From an uncultured bacterium (GTDB taxonomy: Bacteria > Cyanobacteriota > Vampirovibrionia > Gastranaerophilales > Gastranaerophilaceae): a stretch of DNA of 35,638 nt. The position numbers and the translations under genes are program-made. The notes under the pieces are model-generated. The model saw only the letters and a program-made list of their open reading frames with translations, was not told where the DNA came from and did no database searches. Position 1 is the first letter of the stretch. Every line of letters begins with the position of its first letter. Shown here piece after piece: positions 11,918-26,279 of this stretch. The DNA lies in contig CACWLL010000005.1 in assembly GCA_902761735.1 (NCBI GenBank), positions 1 to 35,638 on the forward strand, in the 5' to 3' direction.

Positions 11918-12973
11918 ATGGATATTGAAATCAGGCGTAACGAGGGCATTTCGCAAGCTATTAAAAGACAACTTATTGAATATGGTGCAAATGAAGCACA
12001 ATTTAAAAATAAAAGTCTGTGGATTAGCATAAAAGAAATTATAAGTAATAAAAGCGCAGGTGATATTCTAAAAACAAGAAACGGGAACAAAAACCTTGGT
12101 GAAGCTTTTGAAAAGAATACAGCAACAAATGCCGATGATACTGTCAGTATCACAAAAGAAACTTGGAATAAACTTGTTACACTTACGGGGGCAAGAAAAT
12201 CTGCTGATGCAAATGCCGAAACAGAACAAAATCAACTTGCAATAAATGATGAAAAAAATGATGCCGCATTGGGAGAAACCTCTCCTGACGGGAACGAAAA
12301 ATATCAAAACAAAGCCCCTGCAAACGGAAAATTAGACCACATATACAAACAAGGTGATGTTGCAGATTGTTGGATTCTTGCGGGTATTGAATCGGTAAAA
12401 AGAAAAGCCGGAGGTAAAAAATATCTTGAAAGCTTGATTACTATGGATTCAACAGGAAACTATTTTACTGTATGGCTTCCCGGGATTAGTCACAGATATA
12501 CTTTCAGCCAAAGAGAGCTTCAAAATGCCGCATATCTTTCAAAAGGTGATTTGGATGTAAGACTTTTTGAACTTGCAATGGATAAATATTATAAGAGTAT
12601 AAATGAGGGAGATAGAGATGAATATGGTTCTAATATAGGTAGAGATTATACGGAAGAATTTTACAAAGCAATATTACCACCTGTTGCTTTTGTGAAAACG
12701 ACATCAACACCACAAAATCCGTTCAATCCGAAAAATTTCTCAAATCCCCGTAAAGCTTATACAATAAGCGTAAAAAGTTCTGACACACCTACAGTAGAAA
12801 ATGGTGAGCATTGCGGAAACAAATTACACCAAAAGCACGCATACAGCGTTGTCAAAAGTGACTCCCAATACATTTATATAATTGATCCGCACGCTTCTGA
12901 CAGAATTATGAAACTTTCTGTTGAAGAATTTAAAAAATATAATGTTCTTATAGAAAGTGTCGTACTACCGTAG
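11918..12973 (+). CDS. Calpain-like cysteine protease
   Basis: This 351-aa protein ends in a calpain (C2)-type catalytic domain. KQGDVADCWILAGIESV (144-160) matches the calpain QGxxGDCWFLAAL box with Cys151; DVRLFELAMDKYYKSI (213-228) matches the LLEKAYAK helix; QKHAYSVV (305-312) supplies His307; IIDPHASD (321-328) stands where calpains have NPW, so the third residue would be Asp323 instead of Asn. Residues 1-135 are polar and Asn/Glu/Lys-rich, like a propeptide or targeting region; no signal peptide or calcium-binding domain is seen. GGAGAG precedes the ATG. It diverges from bioF and has no evident partner. Confidence 0.8.
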   Translation: MDIEIRRNEGISQAIKRQLIEYGANEAQFKNKSLWISIKEIISNKSAGDILKTRNGNKNLGEAFEKNTATNADDTVSITKETWNKLVTLTGARKSADANAETEQNQLAINDEKNDAALGETSPDGNEKYQNKAPANGKLDHIYKQGDVADCWILAGIESVKRKAGGKKYLESLITMDSTGNYFTVWLPGISHRYTFSQRELQNAAYLSKGDLDVRLFELAMDKYYKSINEGDRDEYGSNIGRDYTEEFYKAILPPVAFVKTTSTPQNPFNPKNFSNPRKAYTISVKSSDTPTVENGEHCGNKLHQKHAYSVVKSDSQYIYIIDPHASDRIMKLSVEEFKKYNVLIESVVLP

Positions 12974-22174: not shown

Positions 22175-23242
22175 ATGGTTATAGAAGATCTTTTAAAGGA
22201 ACTTGTAGAAAATAACGGTAGTGACCTTCATATATCAAACGGCCTACCGCCTTGTGCACGTATAGACGGTAAGCTAAAAAGAATGGATTATCCGCCGCTT
22301 ACTTCCGAACAAGTAGAAAACCTTTTGTTCCCAATGCTTTCAAATGAACAAAGAAGAAGACTTGAACAAGAATGGGAATTGGACTTTTCTTATGGTATTG
22401 AGGGACTTAGTCGTTTCAGGGTAAATTTTTACAAGGACAAAGGAAATTATGCTGCGGCATTCAGAACGATTACATCTACTGTACCTACATTTGAGAAATT
22501 AGGTTTACCTGAGATTGTAAGAACAACAGCGGAAAAGCCAAGAGGACTTATTCTTGTAACGGGGCCTACCGGTTCCGGTAAATCAACAACTCTTGCAGCA
22601 ATGATTGATTATATCAACACGACAAGAGCTGAACATATTTTAACAATTGAAGACCCGATAGAATTTGTTCACACATCAAAATCAAGTATTATTCACCAAC
22701 GTGAATTGGGTATGGATACAAGGTCATTTGCAAATGCTCTTAAATCAGCACTCCGTGAAGACCCTGATATTATCCTCGTAGGTGAAATGCGTGACCACGA
22801 AACAATTTCATTGGCTCTTACCGCAGCCGAAACAGGTCACTTAGTATTTGGTACATTACACACCTCATCAGCATCACAAACCGTTGACCGTATTATCGAC
22901 GTATTCCCTGAAGGTCAACAGCAGCAAATTCGTGTTCAGCTTGCAAACTCTTTAGTTGCCGTATTTGCACAAACTTTGTTACCGAAAGTTCAACCTGACG
23001 GAACAAAACAAGGTCGTGTAATGGCTCAAGAAATAATGGTTGTTATTCCGGCTATTGCAAACCTTATCCGTGAAGCTAAAGCTGCACAGATATATTCTAC
23101 AATTCAGATGAACCAAGGTTTGGGTATGCAAACATTAGAAATGGCACTTGCTAATTTATACAAACAAAAACTTATAACATTGGAAGATGCATTATCTAAG
23201 ACTTCAAGACCTGATGAATTGAAGAGAATGTTATCTCACTAA
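22175..23242 (+). CDS. pilT: Twitching-motility ATPase PilT
   Basis: This 355-aa hexameric ATPase drives retraction of type IV pili on the cytoplasmic face of the membrane. The N-terminal PAS-like domain covers 1-105; Walker A GPTGSGKST is at 130-138, the Asp box around TIEDPIEF (157-164), Walker B DIILVGEMRD at 198-207 and the His box GHLVFGTLHT at 221-230. The PilT signature AIRNLIRE appears as AIANLIREAK in the C-terminal region. Length and motifs are those of a true PilT rather than PilB. No other pilus gene lies in the window except perhaps the small gene upstream. Confidence 0.95.
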   Translation: MVIEDLLKELVENNGSDLHISNGLPPCARIDGKLKRMDYPPLTSEQVENLLFPMLSNEQRRRLEQEWELDFSYGIEGLSRFRVNFYKDKGNYAAAFRTITSTVPTFEKLGLPEIVRTTAEKPRGLILVTGPTGSGKSTTLAAMIDYINTTRAEHILTIEDPIEFVHTSKSSIIHQRELGMDTRSFANALKSALREDPDIILVGEMRDHETISLALTAAETGHLVFGTLHTSSASQTVDRIIDVFPEGQQQQIRVQLANSLVAVFAQTLLPKVQPDGTKQGRVMAQEIMVVIPAIANLIREAKAAQIYSTIQMNQGLGMQTLEMALANLYKQKLITLEDALSKTSRPDELKRMLSH

Positions 23243-23264: not shown

Positions 23265-23296
23265 AAAAAATCTCGGTTTATAAACCGAGATTTTTT
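23265..23296. terminator. Bidirectional terminator between pilT and the HNH gene
   Basis: Bases 23265-23280 pair perfectly with 23281-23296 (16 bp palindrome, effectively a 4-base loop), with TCTCGGTT arms flanked by A and T runs. It serves pilT on the plus strand and overlaps the last two bases of the convergent HNH gene, so it can also end that transcript. Confidence 0.85.
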
Positions 23297-25325
23297 ATTC
23301 GATTAATTCATTACGTATATCAAATCGCTTGTTGGTTTCTTTATACATTTTCTCAGCTATTTGCCTTGCCCAATCTTCATAACCTTTTATAATTCCGTCT
23401 TTTGACATATTGTCAACTACCTTAACATGATTATAAAAATTCTTTCTTACATCCGGATGATAAGTATACCAAGTATTTACCGATTTTGAACCTTTCAAAT
23501 AATTACAACTTCTGCAAAGTCCTATCATATTATCGGGAGTCTTTGCCCCGCCTTTTTTGGCAGCAATAAGGTGATCCGCCGTAGCAGCATCCATATTAAA
23601 CAACTCATAAAGAGTTTCCGCAAGTTCTGCTTTCGGATTATGTTCTATAAAGTTTGGACTTGATAACACTGTTGCTTTATATGCAAGAATATCCAATGAC
23701 CTGAATAAACTATATGCAGCTGATATCTTCGGATATGATAAATCTATATCACCGAAACACCCTGATTGAAGCTTATTTATATTAAAATCATTGAATTTAC
23801 CGGCATTTACATAATCTTGAATTCGATTTGCGATTAAATCAAAACGCCTTAATTTTTCATTTTCGGAGCTGTATGAATATATTTTATGAGTATCGCTGTT
23901 TATATTTTCATCCTCAGGTATATAGAAATGTCTTTTACTAATATACCTATTGATTATTGGTTGGACTTGCCTTCTCATTTTCTTTGTCGCAGCCCTCCTG
24001 AATATTGCAAGAATTTCCTCATTAGAAGCATCTGGGTTATATTCATATGCTTTTTTAAGACATGCCGAGATATCTCTTGCTACAGGATTTATATATTTAT
24101 CATATTTTTCAAGCATTTCAACAAAGTCATACGGCGTTTCGCACTGCTTTAGTTCTTTTGCTATTTTTACCTTTACCTCGTAAGGTAACATAGTAGTACC
24201 ACACTCGGCACATGGAACCTCTACCTCGGATTGTCTTACCGGAGCAAAATAATCATGCCTTAATAAAACATTTTGTGCAACTTTTATATATTTAATTTCC
24301 GACTCAGAAAATGATATTTTTTGTTTAGAAACTTTATCCGTCATATAACAAAAATCACTTATATAACTTTGTGAGTTATCTATTTTCTTCTCACCCATAA
24401 GTTGTGATACATCTTTTAAATATTTTTGAATATTATTTTTCAATCCGGTATTAGATGTACTATGCCAAAATGCATACTGAGATTGTCTTTTTTGACACTC
24501 TGAACACATTATAAGAACATTATTTTTGTTATTTGACTTCTGAACTATTGTATTTTCCTTCAACAAAGAGTGCTTAAATATTTGTTTTACAAAATCAACA
24601 GCAAGCTCATTGTCACTTTTTTCGCAATCTATCGGGTATACTTTATCAAGACCGCCCAAAAATCTGCAAGCAAGAAACAGATTTTGCATTGTATTACGTC
24701 TTAATTCATTGGATTGATTTTTATCCAGATTTAATTTGGAACACAAATTCATAATTATTTTACCGTTATTAAAATAATTATCACACGGGTCAAGATTATT
24801 TGCAGCCTCAAGTATTATTTGCTTTTGCTCGCCTTCAAAATGCTCGGAATAATAGTTTAAGTAAGACTTTAAATAATCAAAGGCGGATTGCTTTTCATCA
24901 AAAGCTTGCTGTTTCAACGCCCCAATATACGAAGGTATAGTTAAATTATCAATATTACCGATATTATTTGTCATATATATTACACGCTTATAATTTGGCG
25001 TAATATATTCTTTATACTCATTCAACATTTCAGCAAGCTCAGATGCTGAAGTGAAATTTTGCGCCTTATTGATTAATTCATCAAAGGCTTCTTGAGAAAA
25101 CATTCTTGTTCCGCAAGCCGGACAATGTACACCATTAATATCTTTCAACTGTTCAATATTAATCGGTGCGATATTTTCGGGCTTAGAAAAATCACCTTTA
25201 AAACTTATCTCAACTCTATCTTTAGGCATAGTCAGACAAATATTGTTACTGACAAAAATTTTGTCATTACTTAATCCTTGAACAGGAATCCTAAAATTTA
25301 AAAGATTTATTGAGTCGACTATCAT
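23295..25325 (-). CDS. Duplicated zinc-ribbon/HNH nuclease-like protein
   Basis: This 676-aa protein consists of two related halves. Half 1 begins CPACGTRM (68-75) with ELAEMLNEYKEYITP at 96-110 and has CSECQ at 274-278. Half 2 begins CAECGTTM (372-379) with DFVEMLEKYDKYINP at 400-414 and ends in a typical HNH: ADHLIAAKKGG (583-593), TPDNMIGLCRSCN (596-608), KGS. Each half pairs an early CxxC with a late CxxC, presumably one zinc site. Half 1 has NNVLIMCSEC but lacks Asp-His, so its nuclease centre looks dead. ISFKG (40-44) is the N-terminal motif seen in other unknown proteins here. No signal peptide is evident. Nuclease activity and role are inferred. Confidence 0.75.
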   Translation of the reverse strand: MIVDSINLLNFRIPVQGLSNDKIFVSNNICLTMPKDRVEISFKGDFSKPENIAPINIEQLKDINGVHCPACGTRMFSQEAFDELINKAQNFTSASELAEMLNEYKEYITPNYKRVIYMTNNIGNIDNLTIPSYIGALKQQAFDEKQSAFDYLKSYLNYYSEHFEGEQKQIILEAANNLDPCDNYFNNGKIIMNLCSKLNLDKNQSNELRRNTMQNLFLACRFLGGLDKVYPIDCEKSDNELAVDFVKQIFKHSLLKENTIVQKSNNKNNVLIMCSECQKRQSQYAFWHSTSNTGLKNNIQKYLKDVSQLMGEKKIDNSQSYISDFCYMTDKVSKQKISFSESEIKYIKVAQNVLLRHDYFAPVRQSEVEVPCAECGTTMLPYEVKVKIAKELKQCETPYDFVEMLEKYDKYINPVARDISACLKKAYEYNPDASNEEILAIFRRAATKKMRRQVQPIINRYISKRHFYIPEDENINSDTHKIYSYSSENEKLRRFDLIANRIQDYVNAGKFNDFNINKLQSGCFGDIDLSYPKISAAYSLFRSLDILAYKATVLSSPNFIEHNPKAELAETLYELFNMDAATADHLIAAKKGGAKTPDNMIGLCRSCNYLKGSKSVNTWYTYHPDVRKNFYNHVKVVDNMSKDGIIKGYEDWARQIAEKMYKETNKRFDIRNELIE

Positions 25326-25529: not shown

Positions 25530-26279
25530 ATGATTAGGGTTGCGGTATGTGGTGCGCTGGGCAAAATGGGAAAAGAAGTATGCGCTGCCGTTGAAAAATG
25601 TAATGAAACAGAATTGGTTGCAAAAATTGATATTGCAGGAAATGATATTTATAAAACAATAGAAGAAGCTCAAAAATCCGTTAGAATCGATGTTTTGGTT
25701 GATTTTACACAACCTGCATCTATTTTTGAAAATGCTAAATACTGTTTGAATAACGAAATAAAACCGGTTATAGGAACAACAGGATTGAAAGATGATGAAA
25801 TTGCCTTCTTGAAAAATTTGTCAAAAGAAAAAGGATTGGGCTGCTTAATTGCACCAAATTTCTCGACAGGAGCAGTATTAATGATGAAATTTGCAAAACT
25901 TGCGGCAAAATATTTTGATAATGCTGAAATTATTGAACTTCATCACAATCAAAAAAAAGATGCACCGTCAGGAACTTCTATTAAAACAGCACTGATGATG
26001 TCGGAAGAAAATGAAGATTTCACAAAAGGAAATTGCCCTGAAAAAGAAACTATCCAAGGAGCAAGAGGGGGAATTTCATATAAAAACATTCACGTTCACT
26101 CTGTCAGAATGCCCGGTTTTGTCGCATCGCAAGAGGTATTATTCGGTTCAGACGGTCAAATATTAAAAATCAGACACGATTCCATAGACAGAAAATGCTA
26201 TATGGGTGGAGTTATGCTTGCCATTAAACATATTGCGGAGCATAATGAATTTATCTACGGATTAGAAAACATTTTGTAA
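25530..26279 (+). CDS. dapB: 4-hydroxy-tetrahydrodipicolinate reductase
   Basis: This 249-aa enzyme reduces the DapA product with NAD(P)H on the way to meso-diaminopimelate and lysine. GALGKMG (8-14) binds the nucleotide, ELHHNQKKDAPSGT (136-149) is the catalytic signature, and residues about 105-125 form IAPNFSTGAVLMMKFAK. Size is normal. AGAGAGGA precedes the ATG. A -35 TTGACA at 25398-25403 with a poorer -10 TACATA (25421-25426) may serve it, leaving a leader of about 95 bases. It heads the dapB-pxpA-yvcK-panB series, although a hairpin follows. Confidence 0.95.
   Translation: MIRVAVCGALGKMGKEVCAAVEKCNETELVAKIDIAGNDIYKTIEEAQKSVRIDVLVDFTQPASIFENAKYCLNNEIKPVIGTTGLKDDEIAFLKNLSKEKGLGCLIAPNFSTGAVLMMKFAKLAAKYFDNAEIIELHHNQKKDAPSGTSIKTALMMSEENEDFTKGNCPEKETIQGARGGISYKNIHVHSVRMPGFVASQEVLFGSDGQILKIRHDSIDRKCYMGGVMLAIKHIAEHNEFIYGLENIL

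What the first reader, a model, noticed from the sequence alone, without database searches (positions are those of the whole stretch)
23295..25325. Internal duplication with one dead and one intact HNH centre
Both halves have CxxCGTxM, an (E/D)xxEMLxxYxxYIxP helix, and a late CxxC, but only the second half has the Asp-His and HNH context. A 676-aa protein with a pseudo-active N-terminal half and an active C-terminal half is unusual for HNH proteins, which are mostly small. It could be a new nuclease family, possibly an effector or a defence protein.
Basis: partly seen in the sequence, partly recalled or inferred. Interest (0 to 1): 0.65.

Follow-up and report, generated by a model that had tools for sequence, protein, structure and literature searches.

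The report
Doubled HNH nuclease, one half dead
A gene of a gut relative of cyanobacteria encodes a DNA-cutting-type (HNH) protein made of two copies of one fold, of which only the second kept the cutting residues; the dead half has been preserved by selection since an ancient duplication, so it probably does something other than cutting.

Summary
The ORF at 23295-25325 (minus strand, 676 aa) is a full-length internal duplication: profiles of the two halves align over 288 columns (hhalign 99.8%, E 2.8e-29), and a structure model (mean pLDDT 71) gives the same order of helices in both. The C-half has a real HNH centre (Pfam E 2e-8). The N-half kept the two Cys pairs and one Asn but lost the Asp-His and the last Asn. 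44 full-length relatives show the same layout: all have a dead N-half with four invariant Cys, 39 have an intact C-half, and five in one genus have lost both centres. Both halves, and the fully dead copies, evolve under purifying selection (dN/dS about 0.03-0.17). Single-unit paralogues occur in nearly every genome of the family (Gastranaerophilales-type 'Melainabacteria'); no relative was found in phage, plasmid or viral collections. Genes sit alone or in tandem pairs among housekeeping genes. A defence or effector role is not supported. Best reading: a chromosomal, lineage-specific zinc-HNH protein with one active site, in which the dead half serves as a binding or pseudo-dimer platform. Activity and cellular role are untested.

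The parts
23295..25325 (-). whole ORF, 676 aa, duplicated HNH protein
   Evidence: 44 full-length relatives of 649-686 aa
25149..25325 (-). N-terminal leader, res 1-59, no Pfam domain; ends near ...RVEISFKG (FxG at res 42-44, 25194-25202); pLDDT < 50 for res 1-55
   Evidence: FxG in 31 of 44 leaders against 6.3 (max 12) in shuffles
24291..25148 (-). N-half unit (res 60-345), catalytically dead HNH-type fold
25113..25124 (-). N-half first CxxC (res 68-71)
   Evidence: Cys in 44 of 44 relatives
24492..24566 (-). degenerate HNH stretch (res 254-278): N269 and CxxC 274-277 kept; Asp, His and last Asn lost
23298..24236 (-). C-half unit (res 364-676)
24201..24212 (-). C-half first CxxC (res 372-375)
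   Evidence: Cys in 44 of 44 relatives
23487..23591 (-). intact HNH core (res 579-613): D584 H585 (23571-23576), N599 (23529-23531), CxxCN 604-608 (23502-23516)
   Evidence: PF01844 E 2.1e-8; 39 of 44 relatives intact
23265..23296 (.). perfect 16+16 nt inverted repeat AAAAAATCTCGGTTTA/TAAACCGAGATTTTTT between the convergent pilT and HNH genes; probable shared terminator, so the HNH gene is likely a transcription unit of its own
   Evidence: function inferred

Best explanation
It is a chromosomal protein specific to Gastranaerophilales-type bacteria, made by one ancient tandem duplication (or fusion of two sister paralogues) of a ~300-aa unit. Each unit is an HNH fold whose two zinc-type CxxC pairs, normally close together, are separated by about 200 residues of helices. 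The C-half keeps the catalytic set (Asp584-His585, Asn599, Asn608) and most likely hydrolyses one phosphodiester bond at a time, i.e. nicks DNA or cuts a single strand. The N-half keeps only the Cys scaffold and serves as a built-in inactive partner that binds substrate or holds the fold as a pseudo-dimer. Shown by computation: the duplication, the dead and intact centres, conservation of both, lineage restriction. Inferred: zinc binding, nicking, the role of the dead half. The cellular job (nucleic-acid maintenance or processing rather than defence) is a guess.
For: Halves align as profiles over 288 columns; one-to-one order of helices in the model. C-half HNH: Pfam 2.1e-8; the profile of nine relatives matches solved HNH domains of a Cas9 (8d2k, E 1e-6, profile positions 574-655) and of Gmet_0936 (4h9d, 1.6e-5). 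Gmet_0936 binds Zn with two CxxC pairs, is dimeric and shows weak Mn-dependent nicking (PMC3765158). In 44 relatives the four N-half Cys never vary and N269 holds in 43, while the catalytic positions are scattered; the C-half set is intact in 39. The N-half clade has support 0.998, so the dead half arose once. N-half dN/dS 0.08 and 74% identity against 65% for the C-half between the window genome and G007; other pairs 0.06-0.16 for N-halves. Found in about 40 of 191 family genomes, as open frames of about 650-730 aa. No relatives in phages, plasmids or viral contigs.
Against: No activity data. Many dS values are near saturation. The model is poor exactly at the catalytic hairpin (res 583-599, pLDDT < 50; similar), so the geometry of the active site and of the Cys pairs is not confirmed. 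Five relatives in one genus have lost both centres yet are kept under selection, which shows that cutting is not the only function. The double is patchy: 3 of 13 genomes in its own genus.
Confidence: 0.6

Rival explanations
1. The whole family is mainly a zinc-stabilised nucleic-acid- or protein-binding scaffold; the remaining HNH centre is a relic or a minor activity that is being lost step by step.
For: Dead N-half in 44 of 44; five fully dead doubles with all eight Cys in frame, and dN/dS about 0.03-0.08 in both halves of four of them; N-half more conserved than C-half between G000 and G007.
Against: 39 of 44 keep the complete catalytic set in the C-half; single-unit paralogues keep the invariant His and Asn.
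Confidence: 0.2
2. A defence or antagonism protein: restriction-like nuclease or secreted nuclease toxin.
For: HNH domains are common in restriction enzymes and toxins (established knowledge); faster evolution than the neighbours compared (66% against 75-97% identity); a variable, signal-like leader.
Against: No PADLOC match; no methyltransferase, immunity-type partner or island seen; neighbours are pilT, dapB, aquaporin and the like; strong purifying selection.
Confidence: 0.1
3. A degenerating free-standing homing endonuclease.
For: HNH type, intergenic, patchy within the genus; the double lies at a rearranged spot where most genus members have ychF next to pilT.
Against: Shared gene neighbourhoods of relatives across several genera; absent from phages, plasmids and viral contigs; the dead half is preserved rather than decaying.
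Confidence: 0.06
4. An RNA-guided nuclease of the IscB/Cas9 kind.
For: HNH core and following helices resemble a Cas9 HNH; the best NCBIfam hit is IscB, but far below its cut-off (24 against 175 bits).
Against: No RuvC domain match in Pfam; no HEARO/omega-RNA or other Rfam RNA near the gene; similarity is limited to the HNH stretch and the helices after it.
Confidence: 0.02

Closest known systems
Gmet_0936 (PDB 4h9d), zinc-ribbon HNH endonuclease
   Same: HNH core with Asp-His, Asn, Asn; two CxxC pairs; closest small solved relative (PMC3765158)
   Different: 112 aa, CxxC pairs about 30 residues apart, homodimer of active chains; here the pairs are about 205-230 residues apart with a helical insertion, and two units are fused, one of them dead
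HNH domain of Cas9/IscB (8d2k and others)
   Same: HNH core and the helices that follow align (profile positions 574-655)
   Different: no RuvC match, no guide-RNA locus, much lower score than IscB requires
Single-unit HNH paralogues of the same lineage (alignment A1; 319-539 aa apart from one of 743 aa)
   Same: CPCCGxxM, helical insert, E/D-H, G, N, CxxCN, N-terminal leader; profile match to the C-half E 3.7e-38
   Different: one unit, active-type centre; one gene or two adjacent genes instead of one fused gene
Dis3/RNase II pseudonucleases of fungi (PMC8097288, abstract only)
   Same: precedent for nuclease folds kept after loss of activity, as RNA-binding proteins
   Different: unrelated fold; inactive copies are separate proteins, not one half of a tandem

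Membership tests
HNH endonuclease (Pfam PF01844) | profile match above the curated cut-off with catalytic His/Asn set | tested here: met
   C-half 34.6 bits, cut-off 21.4; D584, H585, N599, N608 present. The N-half gives no HNH match.
HNH endonuclease (Pfam PF01844) | metal-dependent cleavage of nucleic acid | not testable with these tools
   needs purified protein
Zinc-ribbon HNH (Gmet_0936/Hpy99I type) | four Cys in two CxxC pairs | tested here: met
   four Cys invariant in the N-half (44 of 44); in the C-half 44 of 44 at three places, Cys 40 and His 4 at res 604. Zinc binding itself not tested.
Zinc-ribbon HNH (Gmet_0936/Hpy99I type) | pairs close together around the HNH core | tested here: not met
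   pairs start 206 residues apart in the N-half and 232 in the C-half, against Cys38/41 and Cys73/76 in Gmet_0936
IscB/Cas9 RNA-guided nucleases | RuvC domain and family-level score | tested here: not met
   NF040563 24.3 of 175 bits; no RuvC in Pfam
IscB/Cas9 RNA-guided nucleases | omega-RNA (HEARO) or CRISPR near the gene | tested here: not met
   only a tRNA in the window by Rfam gathering scores; no repeat array within 22.8-26.0 kb
Known anti-phage defence systems (PADLOC-DB 2.0.0) | match to a system protein | tested here: not met
   best E 0.066, HNH stretch only
Free-standing homing endonucleases | spread on phages or mobile elements | tested here: not met
   no match in phages, plasmids, viral contigs
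Free-standing homing endonucleases | site-specific cutting of the empty site | not testable with these tools
   needs an assay
MqsA/YgiT zinc-finger antitoxins | PF15731 above cut-off | tested here: not met
   N-half 14.8 of 30 bits

The most novel reading that the evidence does not exclude
A nuclease family in one gut lineage that turns step by step into a non-cutting binding scaffold: active single units, then a fused active/dead tandem, then fully dead tandems, all kept under selection, with a lineage-specific N-terminal leader as an address or docking tag.
Probability: 0.25. Interest if true: 0.65.

Novelty: new variant of a known kind. Interest (0 to 1): 0.45.

Why it matters
HNH nucleases are usually small and act as homodimers or as modules of larger machines. 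A conserved tandem of one live and one dead HNH unit is a natural experiment on what the fold does apart from cutting, and the fully dead copies make that question testable. It also marks a large paralogous family (several places per genome) that the libraries searched here know only as generic HNH, in a common but hardly studied gut lineage.

Tried and rejected
Single-protein scan of genome contigs found nothing because the chosen patterns were poor; the nine-sequence alignment was too diverse to scan with; a four-sequence alignment worked. Foldseek and VIA-align gave no convincing known fold for the whole model, nor VIA-align for the C-half (best Z 8.6 on a helical bundle), which does not prove a new fold. 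I first thought the N-terminal leader (MKI...FxG) was a genome-wide sorting tag, because an FtsH-like protease and a DSHCT helicase next to one HNH gene, a DHH protein and an amylase carry similar starts. A survey of about 400 kb in each of the window genome, one relative and a cyanobacterial control showed no clear excess over shuffled sequence (9 against 5.4, 8 against 5.8, control 5 against 4.2), so this is not claimed. Whether the N-half descends from the upstream gene of the tandem pairs (both have IHC before the motif): in the tree the upstream genes group with the single units, not with the N-halves, so rejected as far as the tree can tell. No paper on this family was found. Handing in once failed on the format of the form only.

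Full report
WHAT IS THERE. The window (35.6 kb, part of a 2.0-Mb, 24-contig genome) carries an ORF of 676 aa on the minus strand at 23295-25325. It lies between pilT (22175-23242, plus) and dapB (25530-26279, plus) (names from reading the translations), with a perfect 32-nt inverted repeat at 23265-23296 between the two convergent genes, probably a shared terminator. It therefore looks like a gene of its own, not part of an operon.

THE DUPLICATION. By plain BLAST the halves share only 58 aa (E 2e-5). With an alignment of nine full-length relatives split into N- and C-halves, hhalign joins them over 288 columns, prob 99.8%, E 2.8e-29. Both halves also align end to end with a family of single-unit proteins (N-half E 3.9e-23, C-half E 3.7e-38). 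An AlphaFold2 model from seven relatives (mean pLDDT 71, pTM 0.44) has the same order of elements in both: N 78-88, 94-103, 114-120, 130-160, 165-177, 184-197, 202-229, 238-253, then strands 254-259 and 270-274, helices 275-279, 295-311, 319-334; C 382-393, 398-407, 414-429, 435-468, 485-507, 516-524, 535-553, 564-577, then 605-610, 616-622, 624-642, 652-663. The hairpin of the C-half (583-599) is poorly modelled, also when the C-half is folded alone. The model is a prediction, so it supports but does not prove the shared fold.

THE DEAD AND THE LIVE CENTRE. Only the C-half matches Pfam HNH (PF01844, 579-613, E 2.1e-8). Forty-four full-length relatives, the window protein included (649-686 aa), were collected and aligned. 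In the N-half the four Cys are invariant (44 of 44) and the Asn corresponding to the central N of HNH holds in 43, but the positions matching D584 and H585 are scattered (12 or more residues each; His once at 259, Asp twice at 258) and N608 is replaced by many residues. In the C-half D584, H585, N599 and N608 hold in 39 of 44. The other five, all from genus g5, have lost Asp-His, N599 and N608 yet keep every Cys; one of these genomes (G182) also has an intact double. Four relatives have His in place of Cys604 with the catalytic set intact, a plausible zinc-ligand swap (inference).

SELECTION. Between the window genome and G007 the protein is 66% identical while the neighbours compared are 75-97%; N-half 74%, dN/dS about 0.08; C-half 65% with dS saturated; leader 34%, dN/dS 0.49. 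Pairs of closer relatives give 0.06-0.16 for N-halves and 0.03-0.17 for C-halves; the fully dead copies among them give 0.06-0.08 and 0.03-0.05. Several dS values are near saturation, so the ratios are rough, but every ratio obtained for the two halves is far below 1. The dead half is therefore under constraint, and so is a protein that has lost both centres.

FAMILY AND LINEAGE. A profile of the single units finds strong full-length matches in nearly all genomes of the window's family (two genomes of genus g8 have none), usually several places per genome; at E <= 1e-15 it matched only that family in the class sample (38 genomes of 117), and outside the order only generic HNH-level scores were seen. 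Single units of the same architecture occur in other families of the order. The profile of doubles matches 43 of 191 family genomes at E <= 1e-20, in 13 of 41 genera; two of these genomes (G013, G335) match only in part, with other gene forms. Named records are Cyanobacteria bacterium UBA2855 and an uncultured Candidatus Melainabacteria, among MAGs with vaguer names; I take the lineage to be Gastranaerophilales from these names and from prior knowledge of that group (inference). No relative in phages, plasmids or viral contigs.

CONTEXT. Single units stand alone or as two adjacent genes, both of active type, in conserved surroundings such as TsaE/TsaB-like and PNPase-like genes (named from reading the translations). 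Doubles in five genera share a neighbourhood with an aquaporin and a GH3 gene (only one locus was Pfam-tested, the rest by gene sizes and order). In the window's genus the double occurs in 3 of 13 genomes; G000 and G007 carry it next to pilT at a spot that is rearranged, since most other members have ychF there. No defence genes, partner genes of toxin-immunity type, or Rfam RNAs were seen near the gene.

HOW IT MAY WORK. Solved relatives by sequence are HNH domains: a Csn1-family Cas9 (8d2k, E 1e-6), Gmet_0936 (4h9d, 1.6e-5), IscB weakly. Gmet_0936 carries one Zn held by two CxxC pairs and nicks DNA weakly with Mn (PMC3765158); in GVE2 HNHE replacing the catalytic His removes 94% of nicking (PMC5304195). 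By analogy each half here should hold one Zn with its two CxxC pairs brought together across the helical insert, the C-half should nick, and the N-half should bind or stabilise. The tree gives the N-halves one origin (support 0.998) and separates both halves from the single units (0.997); whether N and C are sisters or one lies nearer the single units is not resolved (0.56).

VERDICT. It is a new variant of a known kind (zinc-HNH), and the suggested defence or effector role has no support. The most interesting part is the retention of dead halves and of fully dead copies.

Noticed in passing
L139-L143 (genus g5; G182, G284, G184, G220, G195): Full-length doubles that have lost the catalytic residues in both halves but keep all Cys; the four close enough to compare evolve under strong purifying selection.
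   Followed up: yes
window 25149-25325 and the leaders of relatives: N-terminal leader starting MKI.. and often ending in FxG: 31 of 44 doubles and 17 of 33 single units, well above shuffles. Related sequences inflate this; function unknown.
   Followed up: partly
L050:6270-14116: Three adjacent genes with similar leaders: an FtsH-like AAA/M41 protein (979 aa), a DEAD/DSHCT helicase (898 aa) and a single-unit HNH protein with a long coiled tail (743 aa).
   Followed up: partly
L021, L022, L032, L040, L059, L023: Tandem gene pairs: an HCIYCKKPM-type HNH protein (~452-518 aa) directly upstream of a single-unit HNH protein; several single-unit genes of this genus have CxxD instead of the second CxxC.
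   Followed up: partly
window 15.6-25.3 kb against L042: Segment from the MatE gene to the HNH gene is inverted in G007 relative to the window, with a breakpoint next to the HNH gene.
   Followed up: no
window 11918-12973: 351-aa protein with a weak calpain-type cysteine protease match (PF00648, E 4e-4, below cut-off) and 75% identity to G007, lower than most neighbours.
   Followed up: no
L102: Double found in a record labelled Muribaculaceae bacterium MAG; probably a mislabelled or contaminated bin.
   Followed up: no
L054:582-2321: Alpha-amylase-like protein with a repeated motif (S/N)DFIANYAQ in its N-terminal leader.
   Followed up: no
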